A DNA stretch of 57,369 bases from Candidatus Poribacteria bacterium (GTDB lineage: Bacteria; Poribacteria; WGA-4E; WGA-3G): NCBI GenBank assembly GCA_022822275.1, contig JAJEBZ010000170.1, positions 1 to 57,369 on the forward strand. Direction: 5' to 3'. The notes beneath the pieces are model-generated. The model searched no databases, had not been told where the DNA came from, and was given only the letters and a program-made list of their open reading frames with translations. The first letter of the stretch is position 1. The number at the start of each line of letters is the position of its first letter. The position numbers and the translations under genes were made by a program. Below are positions 8,802 to 57,247 of the stretch, one piece after another.

Positions 8802-8865
8802 CAAATGCTCCTATATTCTAAAACGATATTTTTGTGCGGCAGAATACTGCAGAAAGTCTTGTAGG

Positions 8866-8938
8866 TGCGCCTGGGAGGAATCGAACCCCCGACACGAGGC
8901 TTAGGAAGCCCCTGCTCTATCCCCTGAGCTACAGGCGC
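8866..8938 (-). tRNA. tRNA-Arg (anticodon CCT)
   Basis: On the minus strand a 73-nt cloverleaf is readable. The acceptor stem GCGCCTG pairs with CAGGCGC, followed by discriminator A. The D arm contains AGCTCAGGGGATAGAGC. The anticodon loop TTCCTAA is closed by GGGGC/GCCTC, and the T arm GGGGGTTCGATTCCTCC is present. The CCA end is not encoded. It sits between secD and apt, same strand, and reads AGG codons. Confidence 0.96.
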
Positions 8939-9019
8939 GCTTACCGCTAAACCTTATTTTAGTTGCAATCTGTTGCATTCTGTTGATATGCGTAAAATGA
9001 AATTAAAGCACAGTCTCTG

Positions 9020-9535: not shown

Positions 9536-9566
9536 AGTTGTTTCTTGTTATTTGTGCTGCACTGTA

Positions 9567-10619: not shown

Positions 10620-10663
10620 AGTTTCCTTTGTTTAGTGTTAGTGCCTAAAACCTGTTGTCAATT

Positions 10664-11728
10664 TTATGTTGGATGGATAAGCACTTTTGCGTAAAATTCA
10701 CTTTTTTCCTTCATCATGTGTAGCATTTTTGTGCCATCTGTTAACGGAACCTTGTGTGTAATCAGTGATGAAAGGTCCAATTTGCCAGAAGCCACTGCTT
10801 GTAGCACTGTTCGCCAATCGTCATCGTTACCAGATGCGCTAAAATCGGAGTTCCATGTCCCTAAGACGCGAACCTCACGCCGCATCAGTTGTGAGATAAG
10901 CGATGCGGGGAGGGTTACATCTGCAATAGGGTTACCAAGCAAAACGACACTGCCACCGCGCCGCACACTACCTAACGCATGAAGAAAGGTTTGCGGGACT
11001 CCTGCTGCTTCAATACAAACGTGTGCTCCTTTGCCTTCAGTCTGTGCGTTCACTGCCTCAACGGGATATTCTAATCTGCTGTTAAAGACACCAGTAAAAC
11101 CGAGACGTTTTGCTAACTCAAGTTTCTCCGTGACAATATCAAACAAGAATAACTGTGCAGCCCCCATTATTTTTGCCCACTGCGCTACCATCAACCCTAT
11201 CGGACCTGCTCCGAAGATAGCAAATGTCTTGCCGGCAAGCGTATCTTGTACTCTCCGCAGTGCATGGAGTGCAACAGCAGCGGGTTCAGTCTGTGATGCT
11301 TCTTCTAATGAAACGCCATCTGGAACACGGATAATATTCTCTTTCGGTGCAACAACAAATTCGGCAAAAGCCCCGTCACTTCTCGAACCGAGGTAATCGT
11401 AGTCGCTGCATTGGACATATTTGCCTCTTTCACAGGCATCACAATTGCCACACCAGATCAGTGGGAAAACGACTACCTTATCACCTTCCGAGAAACCTTC
11501 AACACCTGAACCACATTTGTCTATTGTTCCAGCAAATTCATGACCACAGACAGTGGGAAAACTGTAAGTGCCTTTAGAGAATATCCTTGGAATATCTGAA
11601 CCACAAACACCACAAAAACCGATTTGAACGCGGACTTGCCCCTCAGAGACGTTTGGAATGGGTATCTGTGTTAACTGCAAATCCCCAACGTCATGCAGCA
11701 CAAGTGCCTGCATCAAACTGTTATGCAT
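10664..11728 (-). CDS. Zinc-type dehydrogenase, galactitol/sorbitol-dehydrogenase-like
   Basis: A second MDR-superfamily dehydrogenase, 354 aa. Seen: GFCGVCGSDIPRIF (zinc Cys), VCGHEFAGTIDKCG, the structural zinc set WCGNCDACERGKYVQC, and the nucleotide motif AIFGAGPIGLMVAQWAKIMGA. Its overall wording resembles galactitol-1-phosphate or L-iditol dehydrogenases; that is inference. The track start (TTG 11752) is replaced by ATG 11728, which follows AGAGGGTG and overlaps the rpe stop by eight bases (ATGCATAA), implying coupled translation with rpe. Confidence 0.9.
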   Translation of the reverse strand: MHNSLMQALVLHDVGDLQLTQIPIPNVSEGQVRVQIGFCGVCGSDIPRIFSKGTYSFPTVCGHEFAGTIDKCGSGVEGFSEGDKVVVFPLIWCGNCDACERGKYVQCSDYDYLGSRSDGAFAEFVVAPKENIIRVPDGVSLEEASQTEPAAVALHALRRVQDTLAGKTFAIFGAGPIGLMVAQWAKIMGAAQLFLFDIVTEKLELAKRLGFTGVFNSRLEYPVEAVNAQTEGKGAHVCIEAAGVPQTFLHALGSVRRGGSVVLLGNPIADVTLPASLISQLMRREVRVLGTWNSDFSASGNDDDWRTVLQAVASGKLDLSSLITHKVPLTDGTKMLHMMKEKSEFYAKVLIHPT

Positions 11729-12485
11729 CACACCCTCTTTTGGCAAGTCCAAGTGAAATTGCTTGATGTATCTTTTCTATATTTTCTGAGCGCGAACCTG
11801 TTTTATGAAAAACGCTACTACTGCCACCGACTAAGATGTCCGCGCCTGCTGCAACCATTTTAGGTATGTTTTCAAAACTAACGTTCCCATCTACTTCAAT
11901 GGGGATATTCACACCGCGTTCATTCAAAAATGCTCTACAATCCGCAATTTTTTGTAGCGTCGCTGGCACCAATTTCTGCCCCGCGAAACCCGGATTGACC
12001 GTCATAATCAACACAAAGTCAAGCCGATCAATAACATACTGCATCGCGAAAAGTGAGGTCGCTGGGTTCAAAGCGATGCCAGCTTTTATACCATGCTCTT
12101 GAATTACCGATAACGTTCTATCCAGATGCGTTGCAGATTCAGCATGGACAGCGATTTGTTGAACGCCAATGTCCGCAACTGCTTCCACGAAAAAATCGTT
12201 ATTTTCTACCATCAGGTGAATGTCAAAATCGCAATCTGTTTTTTGTCGTAATTGGTCAATGAGTGTCAATCCAATTGGCATATTTGGCACGAAGTGTGCG
12301 TCCATCAAGTCAAAATGTAGTAGATTTATCCCCGATTTCTCCAATTCCCGAATGCCTGTTTCCAAATTACACAAATCCGCACACATCACGGAGGGTGCTA
12401 TGCGAATCTTTTCATCTGTGGTATTAGGGTGTTGACTCTCATGAGTCGGCAAGATATTTCTCCAATCCAATTCAAGTTTACTCAC
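11721..12485 (-). CDS. rpe: Ribulose-phosphate 3-epimerase family protein
   Basis: Predicted cytosolic TIM-barrel epimerase acting on a ketopentose or ketohexose phosphate. Seen: IAPSVMCADLCNLETGI, LLHFDLMDAHFVPNMPIG (metal Asp/His), DIHLMVEN, VLIMTVNPGFAGQ, IEVDGNVSFENI and DILVGGSSSVF, all hallmark strands of Rpe. About 28 extra N-terminal residues precede the usual start, and the annotated GTG start is uncertain; a TTG codon six residues in is an alternative. It overlaps a polyol-type dehydrogenase gene, so allulose-6-phosphate-type epimerisation is possible instead of the pentose pathway. Confidence 0.9.
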   Translation of the reverse strand: MSKLELDWRNILPTHESQHPNTTDEKIRIAPSVMCADLCNLETGIRELEKSGINLLHFDLMDAHFVPNMPIGLTLIDQLRQKTDCDFDIHLMVENNDFFVEAVADIGVQQIAVHAESATHLDRTLSVIQEHGIKAGIALNPATSLFAMQYVIDRLDFVLIMTVNPGFAGQKLVPATLQKIADCRAFLNERGVNIPIEVDGNVSFENIPKMVAAGADILVGGSSSVFHKTGSRSENIEKIHQAISLGLAKRGCDA

Positions 12486-39332: not shown

Positions 39333-41213
39333 TCATTCAGGTGTGAGTTCCCATAACAGCACGGTGCCATCAAAACTCCCGCTTGCGAGCGTTTTACCAT
39401 CCGGACTGAACACTACGCTGCTAACACGAGCTCTATGTCCTGTCAATGTCAAGAGATGTGTACCTGTTTGCACATCCCATAAACGAATGGTATTGTCCCA
39501 ACTTCCACTGGCAAGTACCTTTCCTTTCGGACTGAATACAACACTACCTATATTATTCGTATGTCCTGTCAATACACTAATAGATGCTCCCGTTTGTACA
39601 TCCCACAAACGCACAGTATCGTCCCAACTCCCACTGGCAAGTGTCTTTCCATCCGGACTAAAGGCAACACTCGTGACTCTATCACTATGTTCAGTCAATT
39701 CATGCAATGATTCCCCTGTCTGCACATCCCACAAACGCACAGTATCGTCCCAACTCCCACTGGCAAGTGTCTTTCCATCCGGACTGAAAACAACACTAAC
39801 AATTTCATGTGTATGCCCTGTGAGTGTTCTAATCGTTTTACCAGTCTGTATATTCCACAAAAGCAAGTTATTTTCAACACCTTGACTTGCGAGTATCTTT
39901 CCATCTGGACTGAATGCAATGCTCTCGATCCCATCCGTATCCTCTTTGAGTTTCTGAATAGATGTGCCTGTCTCAACATCCCATAGAAACACAGTGTCGT
40001 CATCGTCCGAATAACTTCCACTTGCAAGGGTTTTGCCATCCGGACTGAAAACAACACAAGAGACTTCCCACTTATGTCCTATCAACGTGTGAAGTAACTT
40101 CCCTGTTTGCACATCCCACAAATGCCCAGCTTTGTCCGAACTTCCACAACTCGCCAGTGTAGAACCATCCGAACTGATTGCTATATCCCTGATCCTACCC
40201 GTATATCCTGTCAGTTCCCGAAGATGCGCGCCTGTTTTCACGTCCCATAGACACACAGTTTCAGATATGCTTGCAGTTGCAAGGGTTTTGCCATCCGGGC
40301 TGAACACTATGCTGCAGGTATCATCTGTATGCATATTCAATACCCGTTGGGATTCACCGGTTTTCGTATCCCAAAAGCAAACCCTTTTATCCCAAACGCC
40401 TGCACTTGCAATTGTCTTACCATCCGGACTGAATACAACGTCTATAACTCCACCTGCCGTATGCCCTTTCAATGTTTGAAGAGATGCACCGGTTTCTGTA
40501 TCCCACAGTCGCACGGTTCTATCCCAACTTGTGCTTGCGATTAACTTGCCATCCGGACTAAACGCTACAGCCAAGAGATGCTTCTCATGTCCTGTGAGAG
40601 TTCTTAGAGATTTACCAGCCTGCACATCCCATAACCGGGCAGTTTTATCCCAACTGGCACTTGCAACTGTCTTGCCATCCGGACTAAACGCGACACTCCA
40701 AATCCTTTGTGTGTGTCCTGCAAGTGTCTGCAGAGACATTCCCGTCCGCACATCCCACAGACGGATAGTGTTGTCATCACTCCCACTTGCGATTGCTTTA
40801 CCATCAGGACTGAATACAACACTATTAACAGGAAAGGTATGTCCTTTCATCGTCAGAAGAGGTGTACCTGTTCGCACATCCCACAGACGAACGGTAGCGT
40901 CCCAACTTCCACTGGCAATTGTATATCCATCTGGACTGAATGCCACGCTTTTCACATCAGATGTATGCCCTGTAATTAGGTTCATTTCCTCTCCTGTCTG
41001 TGCGTCATAAATCCAAATACCGATACTACCTGCTACTGCCAAACGCTTCCCATCAGGGGAGTACGTTATTTCATTTATAGAACCTTTACCAAGACGTGCC
41101 TTCGCTCCATCGGGTAACCCCCATTGTGTATAGTCTTGGGCAAAGGTGTGTGGGATTAGAGGGAATATTGAAAGCCCAAAGGTTAAAACCGAAAACAATA
41201 TATAATTTACCAT
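39333..41213 (-). CDS. Exported WD40-repeat protein (14 repeats)
   Basis: A 626-aa secreted or periplasmic β-propeller protein. Seen: signal peptide NYILFSVLTFGLSIFPLIPHTFA; then 14 WD40 units of the form GHTxxVxSVAFSPDGKTLASGSWDDTVRLWDVQTG, enough for two seven-bladed propellers; it ends at LLWELTPE. WD40 scaffolds mediate protein contacts. Start ATG 41213 with AAAGGACAAACTTT, instead of 41279. Neighbouring units are nearly identical at the DNA level, so repeat number may vary. Paralogue of the next gene. Confidence 0.93.
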   Translation of the reverse strand: MVNYILFSVLTFGLSIFPLIPHTFAQDYTQWGLPDGAKARLGKGSINEITYSPDGKRLAVAGSIGIWIYDAQTGEEMNLITGHTSDVKSVAFSPDGYTIASGSWDATVRLWDVRTGTPLLTMKGHTFPVNSVVFSPDGKAIASGSDDNTIRLWDVRTGMSLQTLAGHTQRIWSVAFSPDGKTVASASWDKTARLWDVQAGKSLRTLTGHEKHLLAVAFSPDGKLIASTSWDRTVRLWDTETGASLQTLKGHTAGGVIDVVFSPDGKTIASAGVWDKRVCFWDTKTGESQRVLNMHTDDTCSIVFSPDGKTLATASISETVCLWDVKTGAHLRELTGYTGRIRDIAISSDGSTLASCGSSDKAGHLWDVQTGKLLHTLIGHKWEVSCVVFSPDGKTLASGSYSDDDDTVFLWDVETGTSIQKLKEDTDGIESIAFSPDGKILASQGVENNLLLWNIQTGKTIRTLTGHTHEIVSVVFSPDGKTLASGSWDDTVRLWDVQTGESLHELTEHSDRVTSVAFSPDGKTLASGSWDDTVRLWDVQTGASISVLTGHTNNIGSVVFSPKGKVLASGSWDNTIRLWDVQTGTHLLTLTGHRARVSSVVFSPDGKTLASGSFDGTVLLWELTPE

Positions 41214-41461
41214 AAAGTTTGTCCTTTTGAATTTGAGTGGTATACTGCGTTTCAAAATAGCGTATTTACAGTTACACAATTATGGATGCACAAATTGGTA
41301 TATATGGTAAATAATTATTTTAGTTGGTAAAGAGAAATGTTGGGTGTGTTTTAGAATCGCGGGTTATGTAGATTAGGAAGGACAAGCTGATATATTGCAG
41401 TACATAATTTTTTGTAGGTAAAAAGAAGGGATTCCCGCTTATCGAAATGTTGCATCAACAC

Positions 41462-43339
41462 CTAATCCACTGGTTCAGGCGTTAGCTCCCACAGCAGGAA
41501 GCTGCCGCCACGACTCCCGCTTGCGAGGGTCTTGCCGTCCGGACTGAAGACAACTGTATAAACCATCCTTGAATGTCCTTTCAACGTCCTAAGATGTGTG
41601 CCTGTTTGCCCGTCCCATAAACGCACATCAGTGTCTCTACCCGCACTTGCGAGTATCTTGCCATCCGGACTGAAGACAACGGACCATACACCATCTGTAT
41701 GTCCTGTTATTGTCCGCATGTGTTCTCCAGTCTGTGCATTCCAAAAACGGATCGTTTTATCATCACTTGAACTCACAAGGGTCTTGCCATCCGGTCTGAA
41801 GACAACACCAATAACCGACTTTGTATGTTCATTCAGTGTCCGTATAAGTTTTCCAGTCTGCACATTCCAAAAACGGATCGTTTTATCATCACTTGAACTC
41901 ACAAGGGTCTCGCCATCCGGACTGAACACTACGCTATTGATACTTTCCCTATGATCTGTCAATGTCAATAGGCGTTTTCCTGTCGCTACATCCCACAAAC
42001 GCACATCAGTGTCATTACTTCCGGTTACGAGTGTCTTACCATCGGGACTGAACGTAACACAATTGACAAAGTCACGATGCTCTGTCAGTATGTGTAGAAG
42101 TGTACCTGTCTTCACATCCCATAAACGTGCTGTTCTATCCCAACTTGAAGTTGCGAGGGTCTTGCCATCAGGACTAAACACAAGACCTACTACATCAGCT
42201 TTATGTCCTTTAAGTCGCAGGCGTTCTTCATCGGTTTGCGTATCAAACAGAGGAACAGTCTCATCCCAACCAGAACATGCTAACATTGATCCATCGGGAC
42301 TGAACGCAATGCTCCTGACGCAGAAGACGTGATCTGTGATTGTCTGACGTGATGTCCCAGTTTGCACATCCCACAGACGCACAGTACTATCACCACTCCC
42401 AGTTACCAATGTAGACCCATCCGGACTAAACGCAAGGCTTGTAACTTTTCTCGTATGTCCTTTTAGGACCTGAAGGGGTGTACCTGTCCGCGCGTCCCAC
42501 AAACGCAGGTCTGTGTCAAAGTCCATTGCAGTACTCACAAGAAATTCACCATCTGGACTAAATAGGACGTTAGTAATCCTTCCCGTATGCCCTATGATTG
42601 TACGAAGAGATTCACCTGTTTGCATATCCCACAAACGAATGGTTTTGTCCATACTCGAACTTGCAAGGGTCTTTCCATCTGGACTAAACGATACCCTACT
42701 CATAGCAGCTGTATGTTCTGTAAGCGTTTGAAGACATGTCCCGGTTTGCACGTCCCACAAACGCACAGTAGTATCCCAACTCGAACTTGCCAATATAGAC
42801 CCATCTGGACTGAACACAGCATAATTAACCCTGTCCGTATGACCTGTAAGTGTACAAATAATTTCACTTGTTTGCACATCCCACAGACAGATGGCATTGT
42901 CATCACCTGCACTTGCCAATATAGACCCACTTGGACTGAACACAACGTTATTTATACGACAGTTATGCTCGCTCAACGTCCGGATATGTGTGCCTGTTTG
43001 CACATCCCACAAACGGATGGTTCTGTCACCACTGGCACTTGCCAATATAGATCCGTCTGGACTGAAAGACACGGTAGTGACATCAAGTGTATGTCCTGTG
43101 AGTAGGTTAAGTGCTTTTGCCGTCTGTGCGTCGTATATCCAAATACCGATGGCACTTGCTACCGCTATAAGCTTTCCATCAGGGGAATATGCTATCTCAG
43201 GCGGATTTAGGACATCACTTATCCTGCCTTTGCCGAGACGTGCTATCACACCTGTGGGTAGATTCCATTGTGTGCAATCTTGGGAAACGGTGTTTGAGTC
43301 TAAAGTATGTAAAGAAATAGAGGGTTGTGTTTTTTTCAT
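41462..43339 (-). CDS. WD40-repeat protein, paralogue without signal peptide
   Basis: A 625-aa protein with 14 WD40 units (two seven-bladed propellers), closely similar to its neighbour; both begin with QW(N/G)LP...ARLGKG and end with LLWELTPE. Unlike the neighbour, it starts MKKTQPSISLHTLDSN with no hydrophobic signal, so it would stay in the cytoplasm unless the start is elsewhere. The two genes are 248 bases apart and no other domain is visible. RBS is weak (AGAAAGCG). It probably arose by tandem duplication and then lost its export signal. Confidence 0.92.
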   Translation of the reverse strand: MKKTQPSISLHTLDSNTVSQDCTQWNLPTGVIARLGKGRISDVLNPPEIAYSPDGKLIAVASAIGIWIYDAQTAKALNLLTGHTLDVTTVSFSPDGSILASASGDRTIRLWDVQTGTHIRTLSEHNCRINNVVFSPSGSILASAGDDNAICLWDVQTSEIICTLTGHTDRVNYAVFSPDGSILASSSWDTTVRLWDVQTGTCLQTLTEHTAAMSRVSFSPDGKTLASSSMDKTIRLWDMQTGESLRTIIGHTGRITNVLFSPDGEFLVSTAMDFDTDLRLWDARTGTPLQVLKGHTRKVTSLAFSPDGSTLVTGSGDSTVRLWDVQTGTSRQTITDHVFCVRSIAFSPDGSMLACSGWDETVPLFDTQTDEERLRLKGHKADVVGLVFSPDGKTLATSSWDRTARLWDVKTGTLLHILTEHRDFVNCVTFSPDGKTLVTGSNDTDVRLWDVATGKRLLTLTDHRESINSVVFSPDGETLVSSSDDKTIRFWNVQTGKLIRTLNEHTKSVIGVVFRPDGKTLVSSSDDKTIRFWNAQTGEHMRTITGHTDGVWSVVFSPDGKILASAGRDTDVRLWDGQTGTHLRTLKGHSRMVYTVVFSPDGKTLASGSRGGSFLLWELTPEPVD

Positions 43340-45275: not shown

Positions 45276-45325
45276 TAGATATTAAGGACAGCACAATGAA
45301 TAGATATTAAGGACAGCACAATGAA
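45276..45325 (+). repeat. 25-bp tandem duplication of the cmr1 start region
   Basis: TAGATATTAAGGACAGCACA plus ATGAA occurs twice head-to-tail (45276-45300, 45301-45325), so the RBS AAGGAC and an ATG are duplicated. The first ATG (45296) opens a four-codon peptide (MNRY) ending at 45310; the second (45321) starts cmr1. Confidence 0.9.
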
Positions 45326-46262
45326 AAAGACTGCGTTAAATCTTGAAACCGTTACGCCGATGTTTCTACACGGTCACGACAATACGATTCTTGAACTACG
45401 TCCCCCGCCCTTTAAAGCACTGTTTCGCTATTGGTGGCGGACTGTGCAGGATTGTAGTTGGAAATCGCTTCGAGAAAAAGAGACTAAGTTATTTGGCAGC
45501 ACAGATCGTAAAGCCCGGTTTTCAATTCGTATTTCAGGAACAACAAATTTGAAAATTATCCAGAAAAAACTGTTATCGCATAAAGGCGGCACTCCCATAG
45601 ATGCATTCGCAGCAGACCAGCCATTTGGGTTGCAACTGATTACAAAGAGCAAATCAGATGCTAAGTATTACAAACAGATTGCAAAACTCGGTTTTCTGCT
45701 TGGCGGTGTTGGCAACCGTTCACGTCGCGGATCTGGCTCAATTCGTGAAACATGCTGGAATTTCAAAAATATTTATGATATGCAAGATGAAGTTTTAAAG
45801 ACACTCAACACCGTAGCAAAAACTGATAGATTCCAGAAAAACAACAGTTTTAATATAAAAGGCAGAACCGTTGAGATTATTGAATCAAAATGGCGCACCA
45901 GCAATACTTCAGGTAATGCTATACATCATGTTAATCGCCAATATCCTGTAATTCGACGAATCTTTTTTGGAAAATTAACAAAAAATCTTGACGATCTATT
46001 AAAGGAAATCGGTAATAAAACCTCTGTTGCGAAGGCTCATAACAGAGATTTTACACTTGGAGATGGGAACCCACGTATGGCATCGCCTGTTGTCGTCAGA
46101 ATTCAGAAGATAGACAGTCAATACATACCGATTGTGACACAACTTTATCCAGTCTATCCCGAACTAAATCCTGACCGAGACGATATTCGTAAGATACCGA
46201 GTAACGCACCAATCAAGCAGCTGAAATTCATCAATGACATTATCAAATTGGAGATTCCATGA
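45321..46262 (+). CDS. cmr1: Type III-B CRISPR RAMP protein Cmr1
   Basis: Backbone subunit at the 3' end of the crRNA in the Cmr complex, 313 aa. Seen: N-terminal LNLETVTPMFLHGHDNTILE and LRPPPFKALFRYWWRTVQ, the Cmr1 signature; KETKLFGSTDRKARFSIRIS; and the glycine-rich RAMP loop FLLGGVGNRSRRGSGSI. First gene of the operon; its stop overlaps the cmr2 start by four bases (ATGA). Start ATG 45321 is supported by AAGGACAGCACA. Confidence 0.92.
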   Translation: MKKTALNLETVTPMFLHGHDNTILELRPPPFKALFRYWWRTVQDCSWKSLREKETKLFGSTDRKARFSIRISGTTNLKIIQKKLLSHKGGTPIDAFAADQPFGLQLITKSKSDAKYYKQIAKLGFLLGGVGNRSRRGSGSIRETCWNFKNIYDMQDEVLKTLNTVAKTDRFQKNNSFNIKGRTVEIIESKWRTSNTSGNAIHHVNRQYPVIRRIFFGKLTKNLDDLLKEIGNKTSVAKAHNRDFTLGDGNPRMASPVVVRIQKIDSQYIPIVTQLYPVYPELNPDRDDIRKIPSNAPIKQLKFINDIIKLEIP

Positions 46263-48196
46263 CTGAAAACCAACCAAAACGCCTCATGCTCATGTTCACG
46301 ATAGGTCCCGCGCAATCCTTCATTAAAGCTGCTCGAAAGACAGAAGATATGTGGATGGGCAGCTATATCTTGTCTTATCTTACCGCAACGGCAATGGAAA
46401 AGGTTAAAGGGGATGATGGTGTTGAAATAATCTATCCTGCTATTAAAGAACAATCACCATTTGAATTTTGGGAGAAACAAGACCCTACAACGCCTTCCAT
46501 CCCGAACCTCTTTTTAGCAATTGGAGATGATAATATTTCTCAAGATGATTTGGCTGAACGTGCAAAAGAAGCTGAGAGTGTAGTAAACAAAGTATTTAGG
46601 CAGATGGCAGAACGCGTGCTTGATAAGGCATTTGAAAAAAAATGGCGTAAAACTTATGTTGAAGATTTGTTCAAAAACCAGATCCCCGATTTCTTTGATG
46701 TCTATTGGGTGATTACACAGGAGCAACCGGATCAATCTTATGGAAAGTGGTATGAATACACCGCAAGTAGTCTCGCTGCAATCAAAAACTGCCGGGTATT
46801 TAAACCAATGGAAGAGATGGGACGAAAATGTTCACTTGATGGCACACGCGAAATTTTACATTTGGAAGAAAAAGAATCCATCAAACAAGCAATGAAATGG
46901 TGGGAGAATTTTGCCAGAAACTATCCAAGACATTGCCGACAAAAGGAAGCTCTTTGCGCTGTCTCGTTAACCAAACGGATGGGAAGGCATTACTTGGAAA
47001 ATTACTCCAGATTCAAAGACAAATTTAAAGATAAAAGTGACCGTCCGAAATTTCCATCAACTTCAGAGGTAGCAACAGCGGCATTCAAAGAACGGATCCT
47101 ATGCAGCATCCCCGCTTTTGAGACTTATCAAGATTTTTGCAAAGAAGTCAAGAAATTAAAAGCAACCAATGCGGGTATCCCAATTATTGATCCCTTACCG
47201 AAAATAAAATGTCCGATCCCGAATAATGTTGATGGTGAATGGCTTTATGAGGAAACTTACAATGACTCCTATCTCGAACGTTACTATGATATTGATGCGT
47301 CCAAACAAAGAGACCAAATTGAGCAGTGTAAGAAATTGCGGAAAAAACTTGTCGGGTTGGTTGAAGGCGAACCGGGCAAATACTATGCCGCTATCGCACT
47401 GGATGCCGATAACATGGGAGAGGTGAACCGTAAGGCTAAAGATAAGAAAGAACATGAAGCGAATAGCACGCAGCTAATTGAATTCACGAAAGATGCCCGC
47501 CGAATTGTTGAAGAGGAACATCTTGGCAAGTTGACTTATGCGGGAGGTGATGATCTTCTTGCACTCGCAAATCTCAGAGACTTATTGCCGATATTAAAGA
47601 AATTGCACAAAGCGTTTCCTGATGATCTCACAACTATTTCCGCTGGCGTGTGTATTGCCCATAACAAGATGCCACTTACAAATGTACTTGAACATGCACG
47701 GCGAATGGAAAAGAAAGCGAAAAAAGTAGATGGGAAGGATGCACTTGGGATTGCATTATTCAAGCATTCTGGTAACGTTAGCGAGACCGTGATGAAGTGG
47801 AGATATAACTCACAGAAAGTGCTGCAAGTTACCATGGACACAAATGGTGATTTCAAGACGAAGTCGGGATACGACGGTCTAAAAGTAATTCCTATCGGGA
47901 TGAAATTAGTCAAGTTGTTGCAAGACGATGAAGTCTCCAAAAATTTCTTATACGCTTTCCGTGATGGGGTTGCCAAATTAATAGATAAAGATGGAAAACT
48001 CATTAGTAAAGTGCCGCTTGTCCTTGTTGAGGTAGAGTTTAAGCGTCTCATTGAACGTGCATATAAGAGAGATGAAGTAAATCAAGCGACAATCCAAAAA
48101 ACTGCTGAATTGTTGCATTACATAAGTCCGAGACCTTTCAAGCATTTCCTCGGTTTCTTAGAAATCATTACTTTTATTGCAAGGGAGTCAAAATGA
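46259..48196 (+). CDS. cas10: Type III-B CRISPR Cas10/Cmr2, HD-less, GGDD intact
   Basis: Large subunit of the Cmr complex, 645 aa. Seen: the protein starts almost directly with LMLMFTIGPAQSFIKAARKTEDMWMGS, the first palm-like region; the cyclase motif YAGGDDLLALANL places GGDD at residues 429-432; and LDADNMGEVNRKA precedes it. The N-terminal HD nuclease domain found in many Cmr2 proteins is absent, which also explains the short length. Expected activity: synthesis of cyclic oligoadenylate on target RNA binding, without DNA cutting. The stop overlaps cmr3 by four bases. Confidence 0.94.
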   Translation: MTENQPKRLMLMFTIGPAQSFIKAARKTEDMWMGSYILSYLTATAMEKVKGDDGVEIIYPAIKEQSPFEFWEKQDPTTPSIPNLFLAIGDDNISQDDLAERAKEAESVVNKVFRQMAERVLDKAFEKKWRKTYVEDLFKNQIPDFFDVYWVITQEQPDQSYGKWYEYTASSLAAIKNCRVFKPMEEMGRKCSLDGTREILHLEEKESIKQAMKWWENFARNYPRHCRQKEALCAVSLTKRMGRHYLENYSRFKDKFKDKSDRPKFPSTSEVATAAFKERILCSIPAFETYQDFCKEVKKLKATNAGIPIIDPLPKIKCPIPNNVDGEWLYEETYNDSYLERYYDIDASKQRDQIEQCKKLRKKLVGLVEGEPGKYYAAIALDADNMGEVNRKAKDKKEHEANSTQLIEFTKDARRIVEEEHLGKLTYAGGDDLLALANLRDLLPILKKLHKAFPDDLTTISAGVCIAHNKMPLTNVLEHARRMEKKAKKVDGKDALGIALFKHSGNVSETVMKWRYNSQKVLQVTMDTNGDFKTKSGYDGLKVIPIGMKLVKLLQDDEVSKNFLYAFRDGVAKLIDKDGKLISKVPLVLVEVEFKRLIERAYKRDEVNQATIQKTAELLHYISPRPFKHFLGFLEIITFIARESK

Positions 48197-49338
48197 AACT
48201 ATTTCTACAACCTAACGACACCTTCTTTTTTCGTGACGGAAAGCCTTTTACAAAAGGAGAGCAATCGGAAGGATATTCAATTTTTCCGCCGCTCCCATCT
48301 ACAATCCTGGGTGCGTTGAGAACCGCCTACATTGCTGAACACGGTGATTTACCATCATTTTATGCTGGAAAAATGGTGGAGACTATTGGCACCCCAAACT
48401 CACTCGGATTTGTGCGTCTTAAAGGCGTTTTTCTCGCTGACAGGAATTCAGGCATTTATTACCCAATACCGCTCGATCTTGTTGTGAAAACATCTGTGAA
48501 AAAGGATGATAAAAATAGGTTATACCCACTTGAAGTATGTCCCAACAATGCTAATATGAGATCTAATGCTTCACTTAAACTTAAGTATCTTTTGAGATGG
48601 AATGGAAAAGAAGACGTTGAAGCTGAGACAAGTGGTAAGCTCAAACCGCTCTATATGCAGCAGTATTTATTGGGTGAAGATAGGCCTATTAGATTCAATT
48701 CGAATGAGGATTTTGTTTGTGATGAACCAAAGATCGGAATCCAACGAAGCCGCGAAACCTTAGCGTCTGAGGATAACATGTTGTATCGGATTAATATGTC
48801 GCGTTTTCAATCACGATATCGAGATATGTCTGAATTGGGATTTATTGCGGATTATGAATGTAATACCCTGTTACCGGATAATAAAGGGTTGTTACCGGAT
48901 AAAGGACTGTTGAAACTCGGTGGGGAAGGAAAAAGTTTTCTTTATGAGTCGAGTATTCATAACCCAAACCCTTTTCCAACAAAAAATGACGTAGATAAAC
49001 TTAAGAAAGCGATCAAAGATTCTGGTGGTTTCAAACTCTATTTTGCAACGCCTGCAATCTTTAAAGATGGGTGGTTACCAAAAACAAATTTAAAGTCAAT
49101 TGAATTTGTTACAGCAGCGGTTGGCAAACCGATTGCTATTGGTGGTTGGGATATGAAAAAGAATAAGCCCAAATCGACTCGGCGTGCCGTTCCTGCTGGG
49201 AGCGTCTACTATTTTAAGATACTCGACGGTTGTTGCGTAGACGAAATTATTAACACTTTTCACTATAAAAACATCAGCGACTATCAGGCAAAAGAGGGAT
49301 ACGGGCTCTGCTTTGTCGGTGTTGCTGAAGGAGTATAA
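48193..49338 (+). CDS. cmr3: Type III-B CRISPR RAMP protein Cmr3
   Basis: Subunit binding the 5' handle of crRNA, 381 aa. Seen: the Cmr3 opening LFLQPNDTFFFRDGKPFTKG; FPPLPSTILGALRTAYI; KIGIQRSRETLASEDNMLYRINMSRF; and the late glycine-rich GKPIAIGGWDM followed by RRAVPAGSVYYFKI and KEGYGLCFVG. It is tightly coupled to cas10 (ATGA overlap) and the CARF gene two bases on. Confidence 0.92.
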   Translation: MKLFLQPNDTFFFRDGKPFTKGEQSEGYSIFPPLPSTILGALRTAYIAEHGDLPSFYAGKMVETIGTPNSLGFVRLKGVFLADRNSGIYYPIPLDLVVKTSVKKDDKNRLYPLEVCPNNANMRSNASLKLKYLLRWNGKEDVEAETSGKLKPLYMQQYLLGEDRPIRFNSNEDFVCDEPKIGIQRSRETLASEDNMLYRINMSRFQSRYRDMSELGFIADYECNTLLPDNKGLLPDKGLLKLGGEGKSFLYESSIHNPNPFPTKNDVDKLKKAIKDSGGFKLYFATPAIFKDGWLPKTNLKSIEFVTAAVGKPIAIGGWDMKKNKPKSTRRAVPAGSVYYFKILDGCCVDEIINTFHYKNISDYQAKEGYGLCFVGVAEGV

Positions 49339-49340
49339 TC

Positions 49341-49952
49341 ATGACAGTTGTTATAACACCCGTTGGGACATCTCTCTTTACCAACGGGGGAAAGGAAAAT
49401 ACTACTATTTCCAATCTTTTTGCTGACATAGAAGATCTGGATGGAGACCAATGGAATCTCTATCCAACTGCAATCAATCTGCTCAGAACAGAAAGCGTGG
49501 ATTTTATCAACGAAAAACAGGAGTCTGCTGCTGCCGAGCTCCAGAGTAGCATGGCTATTCGCAGCCAACAAGGTCACAACATCACAGTTCGTCTTCTCGC
49601 CTCGGATACGGTCGCTTCAAGGTTAGCTGCAGAGATTTTACAGTCGAGTGCGGCAGCAGTTTTGGGTCCCCAATGCACTTTTGAATTTAATCCTGACACT
49701 GATGTAATTCAAGGGTTACAGGTTTTGTATCCTATGCAATTTCGGAATGACGGTATTCCGAATTTAAAAGATCGTCTGAATACAATTTACTACAATACCT
49801 CTGAAAACGAGATAAATCTTGCTATAAATATTACCGCTGGGTACGGGGCGTTCGTTCCACCTATGATGCTATTTTCACAAGGTATTGGAGGAATTCCACT
49901 ATACTACCACTTCAAGGATTCTCACATGGTCCTTGATCTTTCTAAAATTTGA
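49341..49952 (+). CDS. Stand-alone CARF-domain protein (TIGR02619/APE2256-like), in-operon
   Basis: A 203-aa protein built from a single CARF-like Rossmann fold. Seen: VVITPVGTSLFTN at residues 3-15 (first strand and nucleotide loop); RLLASDTVASRLAAEIL at 84-100, matching the 'L.SDT...AAE' pattern of this family; VLYPMQFRNDGIPNLKDRL; and NITAGYGAFVPPMMLF at 163-178, where the usual NITGGFK reads NITAGYG. There is no HEPN, PD-(D/E)XK or membrane effector domain. Translationally packed between cmr3 and cmr4, it likely binds cyclic oligoadenylate; a ring nuclease or sensor role is inferred. Confidence 0.8.
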   Translation: MTVVITPVGTSLFTNGGKENTTISNLFADIEDLDGDQWNLYPTAINLLRTESVDFINEKQESAAAELQSSMAIRSQQGHNITVRLLASDTVASRLAAEILQSSAAAVLGPQCTFEFNPDTDVIQGLQVLYPMQFRNDGIPNLKDRLNTIYYNTSENEINLAINITAGYGAFVPPMMLFSQGIGGIPLYYHFKDSHMVLDLSKI

Positions 49953-49964
49953 GGATAAACCAAA

Positions 49965-50987
49965 ATGTTCAAACAAGCAAAACCCCTATTTCTAATCGTA
50001 GAAACGCCGCTCCATGCTGGCAGCGGCAGTGACCTCGGCATTGTTGATTTGCCGATACAACGCGAAAAACACACGGATTACCCGAAAATAGAAGCATCCG
50101 GACTAAAAGGCAGTATCCGTGAAATTTTTGATACAAAAGCAAAGAGTGGAGAAATAAAAAAGGACGAAATTAAACTCGTGTTCGGTCCAGAAGAAGGAGA
50201 CCTGCACGCGGGTGCCTTAGGATTCACGGATGCACGACTCTTACTCTTTCCAGTGAAGTCTGTCAAAGGCGTGTTTGCATGGGTAACATGCCCAGCAGTT
50301 CTGGAACGTCTCAAACACGATCTCTCCATTTGTAAGGAAAGTATTAATTTTGATATTCCTGGTGCCAATACAATTCCAAATGAAAATAAGTGCGATCTGA
50401 TTGTGAAGGACAATAAAATTGTCCTTGAAGAGTACACATTTCCTGTCACACCTAACAACGAATGTAATGAAGTCGCCAATTGGATTGCAGACAACGTTCT
50501 ACCAGCAGATGTTCCAAGTTACGATTATTGGCAAAAGAAAATGAAAAAGGACATCGTTGTGTTGAGCGATGACGATTTCCGTGATTTCGTTATGCTCTCA
50601 ACAGAAGTTATCGCCCGAACCAAGATTGATAATAAGAAAGGCACAGTTGTAGATGGTGCACTATGGTATGAAGAATACCTACCAACCGATTCAATTCTTT
50701 ATTCACTTGCGTTGACGACACCTTTATTCATAAAACCAGAAGGAAATACCGATGAAGAAAAAGAGACGGATGAGAAGAAGAAAAAAGGACAATTCTATGT
50801 TGGGAAAGTAGATAACAAAAATCAACTTGAGGCTGAGAAGGTAATGAAATTCTTTGCGGATGGATTACCAGACATCATTCAAATTGGCGGCAATGCAACC
50901 GTTGGCAAAGGAATAGTCCGGACAAACGTTTATCAACAGGAAGGAGGAAACAATGGCACAGGAAGTGACGACACTCAAGGGAATTGA
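49965..50987 (+). CDS. cmr4: Type III-B CRISPR RAMP nuclease Cmr4
   Basis: Backbone subunit that cuts target RNA at six-base intervals, 340 aa. Seen: PLFLIVETPLHAGSGSDLGI; VDLPIQREKHTDYPKIEASG with Asp28 in the position of the catalytic Asp; GLKGSIREIF; LVFGPEEGDLHAGALGFTDA; and the C-terminal IQIGGNATVGKGIV. A Lys/Glu-rich insertion (NTDEEKETDEKKKKGQ) sits near residue 265. It overlaps cmr5 by 35 bases. Confidence 0.94.
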   Translation: MFKQAKPLFLIVETPLHAGSGSDLGIVDLPIQREKHTDYPKIEASGLKGSIREIFDTKAKSGEIKKDEIKLVFGPEEGDLHAGALGFTDARLLLFPVKSVKGVFAWVTCPAVLERLKHDLSICKESINFDIPGANTIPNENKCDLIVKDNKIVLEEYTFPVTPNNECNEVANWIADNVLPADVPSYDYWQKKMKKDIVVLSDDDFRDFVMLSTEVIARTKIDNKKGTVVDGALWYEEYLPTDSILYSLALTTPLFIKPEGNTDEEKETDEKKKKGQFYVGKVDNKNQLEAEKVMKFFADGLPDIIQIGGNATVGKGIVRTNVYQQEGGNNGTGSDDTQGN

Positions 50988-51327
50988 ACAGGGACGCGCC
51001 ACTTATGCTTTCAAGGCGGTGCAAGCGGTTAGTCCTTCTCTGCAAAAAGAATACAAATCCTCAGCAAAGAAACTCCCTGTTTTGATAAAAACGAATGGAC
51101 TTGGACAATCCCTTGCATTCATCAAGAAAAGGAACGCTTACGATAAATTATACGAGCAAATTGGAGACTGGCTCCAAAAAGAAGATGATAAGCAATTGGT
51201 TCCGAAAGGCGAACTCGTTGAACAAGTTATTAAACTCAAATCACCTGTTTATCGGCAAGCCACCGTCGAAACACTCGCGCTACTCAATTGGATCCGCCGT
51301 TTTGTGGATGGACTTATTGAAGACTAA
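50953..51327 (+). CDS. cmr5: Type III-B CRISPR small subunit Cmr5
   Basis: Small helical subunit of the Cmr complex, 124 aa. Seen: TLKGIEQGRATYAFKAVQAV; KKLPVLIKTNGLGQSLAFIK; the typical ending YRQATVETLALLNWIRRFVD. Start ATG 50953 is preceded by GGAAGGAGG within the end of cmr4. Cmr6 follows after 13 bases. Confidence 0.93.
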   Translation: MAQEVTTLKGIEQGRATYAFKAVQAVSPSLQKEYKSSAKKLPVLIKTNGLGQSLAFIKKRNAYDKLYEQIGDWLQKEDDKQLVPKGELVEQVIKLKSPVYRQATVETLALLNWIRRFVDGLIED

Positions 51328-51340
51328 GAAAGGACAACCG

Positions 51341-52438
51341 ATGCCTAATTACCACCCATCTGACACTGTTAGTATAGTGCAATTCAATCAAATTGATAAC
51401 TTCGCCCTACGTTATCAACATTTCTTGCGGATTGATAGACCAAGGAACAATGACCCAAAATACAAAGTTAACTTTCAGCGTTCTGCTGATAGACTGGAGA
51501 GTTCTTCCATGAAATTGGTTACGCAATTGAGAGAACGACAAAAAGCACAACTCCAGCAATTCGCTCAGCAAGGCATCAAACTTTACTGCGTCAATGCAAC
51601 CGTTGATTGGCGGTTAATAGTCGGTCTCGGCGGTGAACATGTGCAAGAAACGAACATGACACTTCATCACATCTACGGCATCCCATATATACCCGGTAGT
51701 GCCGTAAAAGGTGTCCTGCGGCATTGGTGGTTAGAGAAAGACTTTTCTGATAAGAACGGCAAAATTTCTGAAGAAAAAGCCCTGAAGGATTCCGTTTTTC
51801 TCTCAATTTTCGGCAGCCAAGAACAGCGCGGGGAGGTGCGATTCCTTGATGCCTATCCTGAGAAAGTCCAGTTTGCAACCGACATCATGAATCCTCACTT
51901 TGGTGATTATTACAGTGGTACAAAACCACCAACAGACAATCAAAATCCAGTACCTATCAATTTTCTAACAGTAGAGAAAACTGTTTTTCGATTTGTTTTC
52001 TTGGCGAAGGATCAGGATCCTCTTGAAAAAATAGAAGAGCGGTTTGAAGAGGCGTTGGAATTAAAGGGTGTTGGTGCGAAAACTGCTGTCGGCTACGGGT
52101 ATTTCCGCGATTTAAAAGACAAGACTGATACTATCACTGCCGAACTCAAACAACAACAGGAAGCAGCTGAAAAACAACGAGAAGAGAAGCGGTTAGCAAG
52201 TCTCTCTCCTATTGAACAACTTACTGAAGAAGTGAAAAGTCTCACCAACAGTCAAGTGGACGAAGAGCGTGCTACCGAAATTTACAACAAACAACTTCCA
52301 TCGCTTGAAGAAGATGACAAACAATTAATTGCGCGGGCATTGAAAGCTTATTGGCAGCGCATCAATAAGTGGAAAGACGGTTCCGACAAACAAAGACAAA
52401 AAGTGATAGCGGTTAAGGCGATTTTAGAGGAAAATTGA
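51341..52438 (+). CDS. cmr6: Type III-B CRISPR RAMP protein Cmr6
   Basis: RAMP subunit capping the Cmr filament, 365 aa. Seen: VGLGGEHVQETNMTLHHIYG; IPYIPGSAVKGVLRHWW; FGSQEQRGEVRFLDAYPEK; and the glycine-rich GVGAKTAVGYGYF. After ~240 residues there is a charged, probably coiled-coil extension (QQQEAAEKQREEKRLASLSP...) unusual in length. The track ORF starts 82 codons too early inside cmr5; ATG 51341 with AAAGGAC is the right start. Confidence 0.92.
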   Translation: MPNYHPSDTVSIVQFNQIDNFALRYQHFLRIDRPRNNDPKYKVNFQRSADRLESSSMKLVTQLRERQKAQLQQFAQQGIKLYCVNATVDWRLIVGLGGEHVQETNMTLHHIYGIPYIPGSAVKGVLRHWWLEKDFSDKNGKISEEKALKDSVFLSIFGSQEQRGEVRFLDAYPEKVQFATDIMNPHFGDYYSGTKPPTDNQNPVPINFLTVEKTVFRFVFLAKDQDPLEKIEERFEEALELKGVGAKTAVGYGYFRDLKDKTDTITAELKQQQEAAEKQREEKRLASLSPIEQLTEEVKSLTNSQVDEERATEIYNKQLPSLEEDDKQLIARALKAYWQRINKWKDGSDKQRQKVIAVKAILEEN

Positions 52439-52459: not shown

Positions 52460-53428
52460 ATGCTCAAAAACTTCCAATTCACCCACTACCGCCTCACCTA
52501 CACCGTCCAAGAACCGCTCAAGATGCCGCCCTACAAAGGCAACATCTTCCGCAGCCGATTCGGATACCTACTCCACCACATCGCATGCATCGGCGACACA
52601 GAAGAATCGTGCCAAGAAAAGTGTCAATACCCTGACCGATGCATATATTCAAAATGCTTTGAAACGCCTGTTCCTAAAGATAGCCCTATCCTACGAGGAC
52701 AACCGTATGCACCACATCCTTTCATCCTCCAACCACCCCGCACATCTAAGATGGAATATATCCCAGGCGACACCTTCACCTGCCACCTGCTTCTCATCGG
52801 AGAAGCAATCAACTTATTGCCCTGGATAGTGTTTGCTTTTTATGAGATGGGTAAAAGGCGTATCGGACTACAAGGCAAACGCGGGCAATGCCAATTGGAA
52901 AAAGTAGAAAGCCTCTCCGCACATGATAACCAGCAATCACAGACGATTTACACAGCAGAAACCGAGATGTTGACAGATGACGGACTGATCCTCCGACTTG
53001 ACGATGTGATGGACAACGCACCTGATGTCACCGATACGATTGAACTTGAGTTTATCACACCTACCAGCATCAAGGTGGATGGAAAATGGACAAAAGATTT
53101 GACGTTTGAACATCTTATCCGCAACCTGCTTAGGCGTATCCGATTTTTGAGTTACTTTCATTGTGGTGAGGATTTAGATGTAGACGCGCATGCGTTGATT
53201 GATGCTGCACGTGCTATTACACACGAACCCCATTTCCATTGGCTCAAGTCCAATCGCTACTCTTATCGTGCGGAGAGTTCTATTCCAATGGACGGGTTTA
53301 TTGGGAAAGTTCATTATTCAGGGCAGTTTGAACCGTTTTTACCGTTCATCTATCTTGGCGAGTATTTGCATATCGGGCATCACACAGCATTTGGGTTTGG
53401 ACAATATCGTATCACTTCACCGTCTTAA
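52460..53428 (+). CDS. cas6: CRISPR endoribonuclease Cas6
   Basis: Processes the pre-crRNA at repeats, leaving an eight-base 5' handle; 322 aa. Seen: FQFTHYRLTYTVQEPLKMPP start; FRSRFGYLLHHIAC; a cysteine cluster CQEKCQYPDRCIYSKC near residues 50-66, probably binding metal; and the C-terminal glycine-rich loop LGEYLHIGHHTAFGFGQYRI. The motif fits the PF10040-type Cas6 branch. Last gene of the packed cmr operon (21-base gap after cmr6). Confidence 0.9.
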   Translation: MLKNFQFTHYRLTYTVQEPLKMPPYKGNIFRSRFGYLLHHIACIGDTEESCQEKCQYPDRCIYSKCFETPVPKDSPILRGQPYAPHPFILQPPRTSKMEYIPGDTFTCHLLLIGEAINLLPWIVFAFYEMGKRRIGLQGKRGQCQLEKVESLSAHDNQQSQTIYTAETEMLTDDGLILRLDDVMDNAPDVTDTIELEFITPTSIKVDGKWTKDLTFEHLIRNLLRRIRFLSYFHCGEDLDVDAHALIDAARAITHEPHFHWLKSNRYSYRAESSIPMDGFIGKVHYSGQFEPFLPFIYLGEYLHIGHHTAFGFGQYRITSPS

Positions 53429-53678: not shown

Positions 53679-53954
53679 ATGTTATATGTTATTTCTTATG
53701 ACATCCCAGATGACCGAAGACGAAACCAACTCGCGAAAGCACTAAAAGGATATGGCACCCGCGTCCAGTACAGTGTATTTGAAGCACATCTGAACAAAGC
53801 AGAATTTGAAGAACTGAAACAGGAAGTTGCTAATGTTATAGATTCTTCAGAAGATTCAGTACGCTATTACGCGCTATGCAAAACTTGCGCAAACCAAATT
53901 GAGGTGCCTGCCGTTGGCGACTTAACCTCTGTCCCCAACACAATAGTTGTTTGA
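53679..53954 (+). CDS. cas2: CRISPR adaptation protein Cas2
   Basis: A 91-aa ferredoxin-like protein that forms the spacer-integration complex with Cas1. Seen: MLYVISYDIPDDRRRNQLAK with the conserved Asp at the end of strand one; GYGTRVQYSVFEAHLNKAEF; DSVRYYALCKTC. TTAGAGGTAATAC RBS. No cas1 is found in the window: the next genes are unrelated. Either cas1 lies beyond the right end or is supplied from another locus. Confidence 0.95.
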   Translation: MLYVISYDIPDDRRRNQLAKALKGYGTRVQYSVFEAHLNKAEFEELKQEVANVIDSSEDSVRYYALCKTCANQIEVPAVGDLTSVPNTIVV

Positions 53955-54100: not shown

Positions 54101-56005
54101 CTACTTGGATTGACTTTGCATTATTTCTACTACTTCATCAAGTTTGTGTTTTTCCGCGGCATACAGTGGGGTTCTTCCTTTAGCATTCTGAATATTGGGG
54201 TCCGCCCCATGATTTAGCAATAGCAATATGTAATCGACATCTACATAAGAGTTACCAAAAATTGCCCGCATAAAACGTTTTTCTACTCCATACCAATGTA
54301 TTGTTTCGTGGAGTGGCGTATTGCCACCAGCGTCCTGTGCGTTGACATCCGCACCCCGAGATAGTAGGACTTTTGTTGTCCCTTGATACGCCTTTTTGGC
54401 AGCGATGTGTAGCGGGGTATATCCATAATTGCCCGGGATATTGATATCCGCGCCATGATCCAGTAAGATATTTGTGACCAATATCGTCTCACCTCTAACT
54501 GCGTCGTGCAATGGTGTATCACAATTGTTGTTCTCAATCTGGATGTCCACCCCGTTTTTTATCAACACTTTAAGTGCATCGACGTTGCCGTGTCTTGCTG
54601 CGAGTTGCAGAGGCGTGTTTCCACCCTTGTCCATTGCATGAACATTCGCGTTATATTTGAGCAATAATTCAATTGTCTCAGAAGTAGCTCTACGTGCTGC
54701 TTTGTGTAATGGTGTTTGCCCATCAATATCCTTTACCCCTACTTTTGCGCCGAGTTTTATGAGTGTGTCTATTGCTATATAGCCGTTTTTAGTGGCTTCG
54801 GCTGCATTATGCAGTGGAAATGTTTCATAGATATTCTGTGCGTGGATATCTGCCCCGTTTCTGATGAGGATATCCATTATTTCAGGGTCACCGTGCCACA
54901 TTGCAAAATGTAGTGGAGTATCCGACTCGTCATCTTTACTTTTGACTTGTGCACCGCATAGTATCAAGTGTCGGACCATCGGATAGGCATCATGGTGTCT
55001 TACGGCAAAATGCAGTGGCGTACTGCCAAAATAATCCTTAGCATTTATCGCCGCACCATTGTCCATAAGTGTTTTTGCTATTCTCTGGGCATTCTTCTTA
55101 GCTGCGATGTGTAGCGGTGTTTTCTTAAGACTATTTTGTATATTTATCTGTGCACTGTATTGTATAAGGAGTACTACAAGGTAATATGCATTTGGGTATC
55201 CAGCCAGAAAATGTAATGGTGTTTCATTATCAGAGTTTTTAACGTTTATCGCCGCGCCATTTTCTATAAGTATCTTTGCGGTTTTTTGCGCGTTGTTTTT
55301 TGCTGCGATATGTAGTGGTGTATTAAAACGATAATTATCTACTATGTTGACCTCTGCGCCGTGCTGTATGAGGAGCTCTACAAGGTGATATGCACTTGGG
55401 TATCCAGCCAGAAAATGTAATGGTGTTTCATTATCAGAGTTCTTAACGTTTATCGCCGCGCCATTTTCTATAAGTATCTGTGCCGTTTCCTGTGCGTTTT
55501 TCTCTGCGGCGATGTGTAGTGGCGTTTCATTCCGATTATTCTTAACGTTTGTCTCAGCACGATTTTCTATGAGTATCTGTACCGTTTCCTGTGCGTTTTT
55601 CTCTGCGGCGATGTGTAGTGGCGTTCTGCTATATTTACCTTGTATGTTTATTTGTGCGCCGTGCTGTATGAGGAGATCTACAAGGTGATATGCATTTGGG
55701 TATTCAGCCAGAAGATGTAATGGTGTTTCATTATCAGAGTTTTTAACGTTTATCGCCGCGCCATTTTCTATAAGTATCTTTACTGTTTCTTGTCTGTTGA
55801 ACTCTGCTGCGATGTGTAGCGGTGTATTGCCTCCATAGTCTACTTCGTTGACATCTGCGCCGCTTGCAATGTGTTTTTGAATTGACTCAACAGCGTAAAA
55901 CTTTATTATGGCTTGGTGCAAGGGGGGTGTGGTTCTTTCTTGGCTGACTGTTCCCCTTCTTCCGTGCCTTCTATTTCTGCGATTGGCGTTATTTTGATCG
56001 TCCAT
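54101..56005 (-). CDS. Ankyrin-repeat protein (about 17 repeats)
   Basis: A 634-aa protein without signal peptide composed of 33-residue ankyrin repeats (TPLHIAAEKNAQETVQILIE... form), about 17 units, after a basic N-terminus NRRNRRHGRRG. The first half shows a higher-order unit of two repeats (NETPLHFLAGYP... plus TPLHIAAK.NAQ...), ~66 residues or 198 bases, copied about four times. Ankyrin solenoids bind proteins; in symbionts they may meet host targets. RBS AAGGAGGAAAC before ATG 56005, nine bases after the upstream gene. Confidence 0.93.
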   Translation of the reverse strand: MDDQNNANRRNRRHGRRGTVSQERTTPPLHQAIIKFYAVESIQKHIASGADVNEVDYGGNTPLHIAAEFNRQETVKILIENGAAINVKNSDNETPLHLLAEYPNAYHLVDLLIQHGAQINIQGKYSRTPLHIAAEKNAQETVQILIENRAETNVKNNRNETPLHIAAEKNAQETAQILIENGAAINVKNSDNETPLHFLAGYPSAYHLVELLIQHGAEVNIVDNYRFNTPLHIAAKNNAQKTAKILIENGAAINVKNSDNETPLHFLAGYPNAYYLVVLLIQYSAQINIQNSLKKTPLHIAAKKNAQRIAKTLMDNGAAINAKDYFGSTPLHFAVRHHDAYPMVRHLILCGAQVKSKDDESDTPLHFAMWHGDPEIMDILIRNGADIHAQNIYETFPLHNAAEATKNGYIAIDTLIKLGAKVGVKDIDGQTPLHKAARRATSETIELLLKYNANVHAMDKGGNTPLQLAARHGNVDALKVLIKNGVDIQIENNNCDTPLHDAVRGETILVTNILLDHGADINIPGNYGYTPLHIAAKKAYQGTTKVLLSRGADVNAQDAGGNTPLHETIHWYGVEKRFMRAIFGNSYVDVDYILLLLNHGADPNIQNAKGRTPLYAAEKHKLDEVVEIMQSQSK

Positions 56006-56827: not shown

Positions 56828-56949
56828 GTCTAAATCTCAGATGACGTATGAGTTCAGATTAACCATTAGCCTTCAGTTGTCAACCATCAACGAATATGTC
56901 TCTTGAAATAAACCACTTTGCTGACTGCTAATAGCCGATTGCTGATTGC

Positions 56950-57210
56950 CAATACATTCCCTTCAAACGGGAAGGACTTTCCGAACTGAAAATGAAATTT
57001 TTATTTTTGAATCTGATAGTTTTGTTTCAATTCCCTTCAAACGGGAAGGACTTTCCGAACCCACTACCAAATTAAGAGGTATCTTCTAATGACAATCAGT
57101 TTCAATTCCCTTCAAACGGGAAGGACTTTCCGAACTGTATCCAACTCGGTAAGAAAATGTATGAAAGCATGTAGTTTCAATTCCCTTCAAACGGGAAGGA
57201 CTTTCCGAAC
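56950..57210 (-). CRISPR. Type III CRISPR array end, four repeats and three spacers
   Basis: Three exact 37-base repeats (57024-57060, 57099-57135, 57174-57210; plus strand begins GTTTCAATTCCCTTCAAACG, ends AAGGACTTTCCGAAC) and a degenerate one (56950-56986) that matches only from 56956 on. Spacers are 37, 38 and 38 bases. On the minus strand the repeat ends ATTGAAAC, the typical eight-base type III crRNA handle, so transcription runs right to left. The degenerate repeat is then the terminal one, and the leader lies to the right. No spacer matches the window by eye. Confidence 0.93.
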
Positions 57211-57247
57211 TTGCAAACAGTGTCACTGAACTAGTGGTCTGTCTATA

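What the first reader, a model, noticed from the sequence alone, without database searches (positions are those of the whole stretch)
46259..49952. HD-less Cas10 with intact cyclase plus a stand-alone CARF protein inside the cmr operon
Loss of the HD domain but preservation of GGDD points to a system that relies on signalling rather than DNA cutting. A CARF protein without effector domain is translated from inside the structural operon, between cmr3 and cmr4, at stoichiometric position. That suits a ring nuclease or a complex-associated sensor. No CARF-HEPN or other effector is visible, so the output of the signal is missing or unconventional.
Basis: partly seen in the sequence, partly recalled or inferred. 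Interest (0 to 1): 0.72.

Follow-up and report, generated by a model that had tools for sequence, protein, structure and literature searches.

The report
CRISPR signal sensor without its toxin
A Poribacteria genome carries a type III CRISPR operon in which an alarm-triggered toxin (a Cami1-type CARF-RelE protein) has lost its toxin half and kept only the alarm-sensing half, which still looks protected by selection; the alarm can probably still be answered by a second, complete toxin elsewhere in the same genome.

Summary
The Cas10/Cmr2 at 46259-48196 has no HD domain and an intact GGDD. The 203-aa protein at 49341-49952, between cmr3 and cmr4, is a stand-alone CARF of the CARF7/Cas_APE2256 family. 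Comparison explains it. In four related Poribacteria the same slot of the same operon holds a full-length CARF7-RelE protein (403-453 aa, Cami1-type mRNA interferase). In the window, and in one other genome, only the CARF half remains, so this is a toxin-less Cami1. The RelE half was not found elsewhere in the genome. The CARF keeps motif I (GTS) and the conserved glutamate. The lysine needed for cA4 cleavage by characterised CARF7 proteins is glycine (G169), so Crn1-like ring-nuclease activity is doubtful. A codon model rejects neutral drift on the window branch (omega about 0.2). HD-less Cas10 is common. Best reading: a CARF-only attenuator or sensor derived from Cami1, with output supplied in trans. 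The origin is nearly certain; the biochemical role is inferred. Novelty: new variant of a known kind.

The parts
45321..46262 (+). cmr1
   Evidence: RAMPs PF03787 E 2e-11; PADLOC Cmr1 E 2e-29
46259..48196 (+). cas10/cmr2, HD-less, GGDD at residues 429-432
   Evidence: Cmr2_N from residue 11, palm2 375-496; motif positions; best PDB sequence match 9arw, a 612-aa Cmr2 aligned from its residue 20
48193..49338 (+). cmr3
   Evidence: PF09700 E 5e-61
49341..49952 (+). stand-alone CARF (CARF7), 203 aa: CARF half of a CARF7-RelE (Cami1-type) protein with RelE lost; GTS 9-11, E66, G169 in place of the ring-nuclease lysine
   Evidence: PF09651 E 7e-12; PDLC01936 E 6e-44 on the CARF half only; full-length homologues in the same slot; fold match to SSO1393, Sis0811, Cami1
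49953..49964 (+). 12-nt gap between CARF stop and cmr4 start; no RelE remnant (full-length relatives carry about 200 more codons here)
   Evidence: sequence; lengths in relatives
49965..50987 (+). cmr4
   Evidence: TIGR02580 E 7e-73
50953..51327 (+). cmr5
   Evidence: PF09701 E 2e-33
51341..52438 (+). cmr6 (likely start ATG 51341 after GAAAGGA; the listed ORF from 51095 is too long)
   Evidence: TIGR01898 E 2e-49 over ORF residues 171-337; sequence at the cmr5 stop
52460..53428 (+). cas6
   Evidence: PADLOC Cas6 E 3e-91
53679..53954 (+). cas2
   Evidence: PF09827 E 1e-26
56949..57211 (+). short CRISPR array, 4 repeats, spacing 74-75 nt; the same repeat recurs about 20 times on contig C139

Best explanation
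The gene at 49341-49952 is a toxin-less Cami1. An ancestral CARF7-RelE mRNA interferase, which relatives keep between cmr3 and cmr4, has lost its RelE ribonuclease half, leaving an intact cyclic-oligoadenylate-sensing CARF domain translated within the operon. Proposed working: the HD-less, cyclase-positive Cmr complex senses target RNA and makes cyclic oligoadenylate (inferred from GGDD; cA4 is inferred because the effectors found in relatives are of cA4-type families). The free CARF dimer binds that messenger and lowers its level, by sequestering it or cleaving it slowly, so it acts as a brake rather than an effector. The toxic output is given in trans by the complete CARF7-RelE of the type III-A locus in the same cell. 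Shown: the homology, the loss of RelE, conservation of the slot, purifying selection, the K-to-G change and the second locus. Inferred: messenger identity, binding, the brake role and the cross-talk between loci.
For: CARF7 assignment by Pfam and PADLOC and by fold. Same operon order with full-length 403-453-aa CARF7-RelE in G046, G030, G056 and G021 (RelE-family model matched over most of its length in G046 and G021) and a second stand-alone CARF in G081 (52% identical). In G081 an IS-like element sits at the 3' end, and its flanks read together give a stop right after the CARF, so RelE had gone before the insertion. No RelE half elsewhere in the genome (best E 0.19). Codon model: window branch omega 0.18-0.22 against 0.21 elsewhere; omega=1 rejected, 2 delta lnL about 17.7. 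GTS and E66 kept. Complete CARF7-RelE with III-A in the own genome; G081 likewise has III-A plus a full-length CARF7-DUF2103 on another contig. Published analysis: cyclase-positive, HD-less loci without effectors tend to lie in genomes with several type III loci (PMC11229360).
Against: G169 replaces the lysine needed for cA4 cleavage, and thought to be needed for binding, in SyCsm6 (PMC9676260), so the protein may neither cleave nor bind cA4 well. Three full-length relatives also have G there, so the change is not tied to the loss of RelE. Stand-alone CARF branches are about twice as long, relative to the operon genes, as those of full-length relatives, which can mean relaxed constraint. Part of the window branch may predate the RelE loss. 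Only two stand-alone cases exist in this set, so the trans-effector pattern is anecdotal.
Confidence: 0.55

Rival explanations
1. Active stand-alone ring nuclease (Crn1-like) that cleaves cA4 and resets the response.
For: CARF7 is the family that includes Crn1 (PMC12409355). Motif I GTS and the glutamate are kept. The closest folds are the ring nucleases SSO1393 and Sis0811. A CARF7-RelE protein, SyCsm6, is a ring nuclease (PMC9676260).
Against: The motif-II lysine is G169. The aligned residue is also G in 7pqa, which the PDB names the S12G/K169G mutant of Sis0811, and K167A abolishes cleavage in SyCsm6 (PMC9676260). The NCBIfam ring-nuclease model scores far below its cut-off (20 vs 600 bits).
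Confidence: 0.25
2. Remnant without function: RelE was deleted and the CARF is decaying.
For: A toxin half lost from an effector gene is a plausible first step of decay. Long branches of both stand-alone CARFs. IS-like insertion at the G081 gene end. In Syntrophomonas an in-frame TGA separates CARF and RelE.
Against: Open frame with a good ribosome site (GGAG), omega about 0.2 with neutrality rejected, and motifs kept in two genera.
Confidence: 0.2
3. Complex-associated sensor: the CARF binds the Cmr complex and feeds back on Cas10.
For: Gene lies between structural subunit genes with short spacing. A CARF-RelE protein of Synechocystis sediments with crRNAs (PMC9676260 discussion).
Against: The slot is explained by descent from Cami1. 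No extension is seen in the 203 aa beyond the CARF fold. Not testable here.
Confidence: 0.1

Closest known systems
Cami1 (CARF-RelE; PDB 8phb, 8phj)
   Same: CARF7 domain; ancestral form in the same operon slot of relatives; fold match
   Different: RelE ribonuclease half absent; lysine of GGFK replaced by G
Crn1 ring nucleases (SSO1393, Sis0811, Sso2081)
   Same: Stand-alone CARF7-type protein with the GTS motif; top fold matches
   Different: Motif-II lysine lost; no wHTH domain as in SSO1393/Sis0811; different descent (truncated effector)
SyCsm6 (Sll7062), CARF7-RelE ring nuclease of Synechocystis (PMC9676260)
   Same: CARF7 with conserved S and E
   Different: Full-length with RelE and with K167
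HD-less, cyclase-positive type III loci without effector (133 counted in PMC11229360)
   Same: Same Cas10 make-up; effector probably in trans from a second type III locus
   Different: Here the disarmed effector is still visible in the operon

Membership tests
Type III-B (Cmr) CRISPR-Cas | cas10/cmr2 with cmr1, 3, 4, 5, 6 | tested here: met
Type III-B (Cmr) CRISPR-Cas | HD nuclease domain in Cas10 (optional, not defining; 39% of type III loci, PMC11229360) | tested here: not met
   Cmr2_N begins at residue 11; no HD dipeptide
Type III-B (Cmr) CRISPR-Cas | Cyclase GGDD | tested here: met
   residues 429-432
CARF7 / Cas_APE2256 | Profile and fold match | tested here: met
Cami1 (CARF-RelE) | C-terminal RelE ribonuclease domain | tested here: not met
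   203 aa, profile coverage 1-186 of 356; RelE half not found in genome
Cami1 (CARF-RelE) | Descent from the same gene (homology and position) | tested here: met
Crn1 ring nuclease | Motif I G-T-S | tested here: met
   residues 9-11
Crn1 ring nuclease | Motif II lysine | tested here: not met
   G169
Crn1 ring nuclease | cA4 cleavage to A2>P | not testable with these tools
   needs purified protein

The most novel reading that the evidence does not exclude
A host-encoded, non-catalytic cyclic-oligoadenylate sponge that arose by removing the toxin from Cami1 after its ring-nuclease lysine had gone, kept by selection to set the threshold of a shared messenger pool made by two type III systems.
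Probability: 0.2. Interest if true: 0.65.

Novelty: new variant of a known kind. Interest (0 to 1): 0.43.

Why it matters
It gives one operon in armed and disarmed versions among close relatives, so the effect of removing a Cami1 toxin while keeping its sensor can be tested directly. It also gives a concrete case for cross-talk between two type III loci in one cell. And it warns that short CARF-only proteins in type III loci need not be ring nucleases: catalytic residues must be checked before that label is used.

Tried and rejected
(1) RelE half moved elsewhere (split effector): not found. (2) Csx1, Can2 or SAVED effectors for this system: Csx1 absent; the Csx1/Csm6 model gives only a weak hit at C110 whose frame looks like a coiled-coil protein; Can2-type absent; the one SAVED protein is an HNH-SAVED effector with its own CD-NTase and E2-like gene, that is CBASS. 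(3) IS-like insertion as the cause of RelE loss in G081: rejected, the stop precedes it. (4) One versus two RelE losses: unresolved. The CARF tree favours window+G081 (p-AU 0.94, but 0.15 for the other tree), while cmr2+3+4 rejects that pairing (p-AU 0.03); recombination or long-branch attraction are both possible. (5) SAM-AMP as messenger: considered because some III-B systems make it (PMC11229360, PMC12255297); no CorA-like gene was seen in the operon and relatives carry cA4-type effectors; not tested. (6) A scan of 85,000 species genomes with the CARF alignment found only the Poribacteria set and one Syntrophomonas locus, but its two short peptide patterns limit reach.

Full report
What is there. 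The window is the whole of contig C116 of a Poribacteria metagenome-assembled genome (phylum from relatives' record titles). The + strand carries cmr1, cas10/cmr2, cmr3, a CARF gene, cmr4, cmr5, cmr6, cas6 and cas2, then a short CRISPR array at 56949-57211. Cas10 is 645 aa, begins with Cmr2_N at residue 11, has GGDD at 429-432, and has no HD domain. Its best PDB sequence match is a 612-aa Cmr2 (9arw) aligned from residue 20 of that chain. All five operons of the same kind in relatives have a Cmr2 called at 620-706 aa, of similar size, and only 39% of type III loci have an HD domain in Cas10 (PMC11229360). The HD-less state is therefore probably a lineage trait and not unusual.

The CARF gene. 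The 203-aa product matches Cas_APE2256 and, best, the CARF half of the PADLOC CARF7--CARF_RelE model (1-186 of 356). A structure model (pLDDT 83.7, pTM 0.85; only one of five models was confident, and the alignment had five sequences) matches SSO1393, Sis0811 and Cami1 and little else.

Where it comes from. A phylum-wide search found relatives in 8 of 85 genomes. In G046, G030, G056 and G021 the operon order is identical and the slot between cmr3 and cmr4 holds a 403-453-aa CARF7-RelE protein. In G081 the slot holds a 200-aa stand-alone CARF, 52% identical to the window's. A transposase gene flanked by inverted repeats lies at its 3' end; with the flanks read together, a stop codon directly follows the CARF, so RelE was lost before the insertion. 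In Syntrophomonas, outside the phylum, the same slot holds a CARF7-RelE gene with an in-frame TGA between the two halves. In other Poribacteria cmr operons the slot is empty, and some of them carry a CARF7-RelE gene after cmr6. The window protein is thus a Cami1-type effector that has lost its toxin half. Only 12 nt separate its stop from cmr4, and the RelE half is not found elsewhere in the genome.

Is it still a gene? A codon model on 188 shared codons gives omega 0.18-0.22 on the window branch, like the full-length lineages (0.21). Fixing omega at 1 costs 2 delta lnL of about 17.7 under either tree. The stand-alone branches are nevertheless long: CARF to operon branch ratios are about 3.6 for the window and 3.0 for G081, against 1.2-1.9 for full-length relatives (my arithmetic from the trees). 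Whether RelE was lost once or twice is unresolved.

What it can do. Motif I (GTS, 9-11) and E66 are kept. The lysine of the last CARF motif (K169 in Sis0811; K in Cami1; K167 in SyCsm6) is G169 in the window, A in G081, G in three full-length relatives and K in G021. K167A abolishes cA4 cleavage in SyCsm6, and the same paper reports that the matching change inactivates Sso1393 (PMC9676260). A Crn1-like ring nuclease is therefore not the default reading. Binding without cleavage, or slow cleavage, is my preferred reading, at moderate confidence; it is inference.

Where the output is. Contig C127 of the same genome holds a type III-A locus with an HD+GGDD Cas10 and a 428-aa CARF7-RelE effector (E 3e-134), and a type I system. 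No Csx1 or Can2-type effector was found, and the one SAVED protein belongs to a CBASS locus. G081, the other genome with a disarmed slot, also carries a III-A locus with a full-length CARF7 effector (DUF2103 type) on another contig. This fits the published statistical hint of inter-locus signalling (PMC11229360), but two cases prove nothing.

Verdict. The thing is a new variant of a known kind: a toxin-less Cami1 in its original operon slot.

Noticed in passing
L024:7710-8946 (Syntrophomonas MAG): CARF7-RelE in the cmr3-cmr4 slot with an in-frame TGA between the CARF and RelE halves: a possible further disarmed case, or a sequencing error.
   Followed up: partly
L059 (G000:C139) 7816-12161: Array of about 20 copies of the window's CRISPR repeat next to cas1 and a reverse transcriptase gene, while the window itself has cas2 without cas1; suggests an RT-Cas1 adaptation module for this III-B system.
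   Followed up: partly
L062:8601-11688 (G000:C255): CBASS locus: HNH-SAVED effector, E2-like gene and CD-NTase.
   Followed up: yes
L005:4502-6486 and 9603-11459 (G000:C127): Type II restriction-modification pair, and a HEC-01B-like gene beside an AAA/SMC-type ATPase gene, next to the III-A locus.
   Followed up: no
L018, L019, L054, L055: Relatives carry a CARF2-HEPN-CARF (Csx1-type) gene upstream of cmr1; L018 also has a CARF4-PDDEXK (Can2-type) gene between cmr6 and cas6, so accessory effectors vary around a constant cmr core.
   Followed up: partly
window 39333-43339 and 54101-56005: Large WD40-repeat proteins upstream of the operon and an ankyrin-repeat protein between cas2 and the array.
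   Followed up: no
window 51095-52438: The listed cmr6 ORF starts too early; the likely start is ATG 51341.
   Followed up: yes
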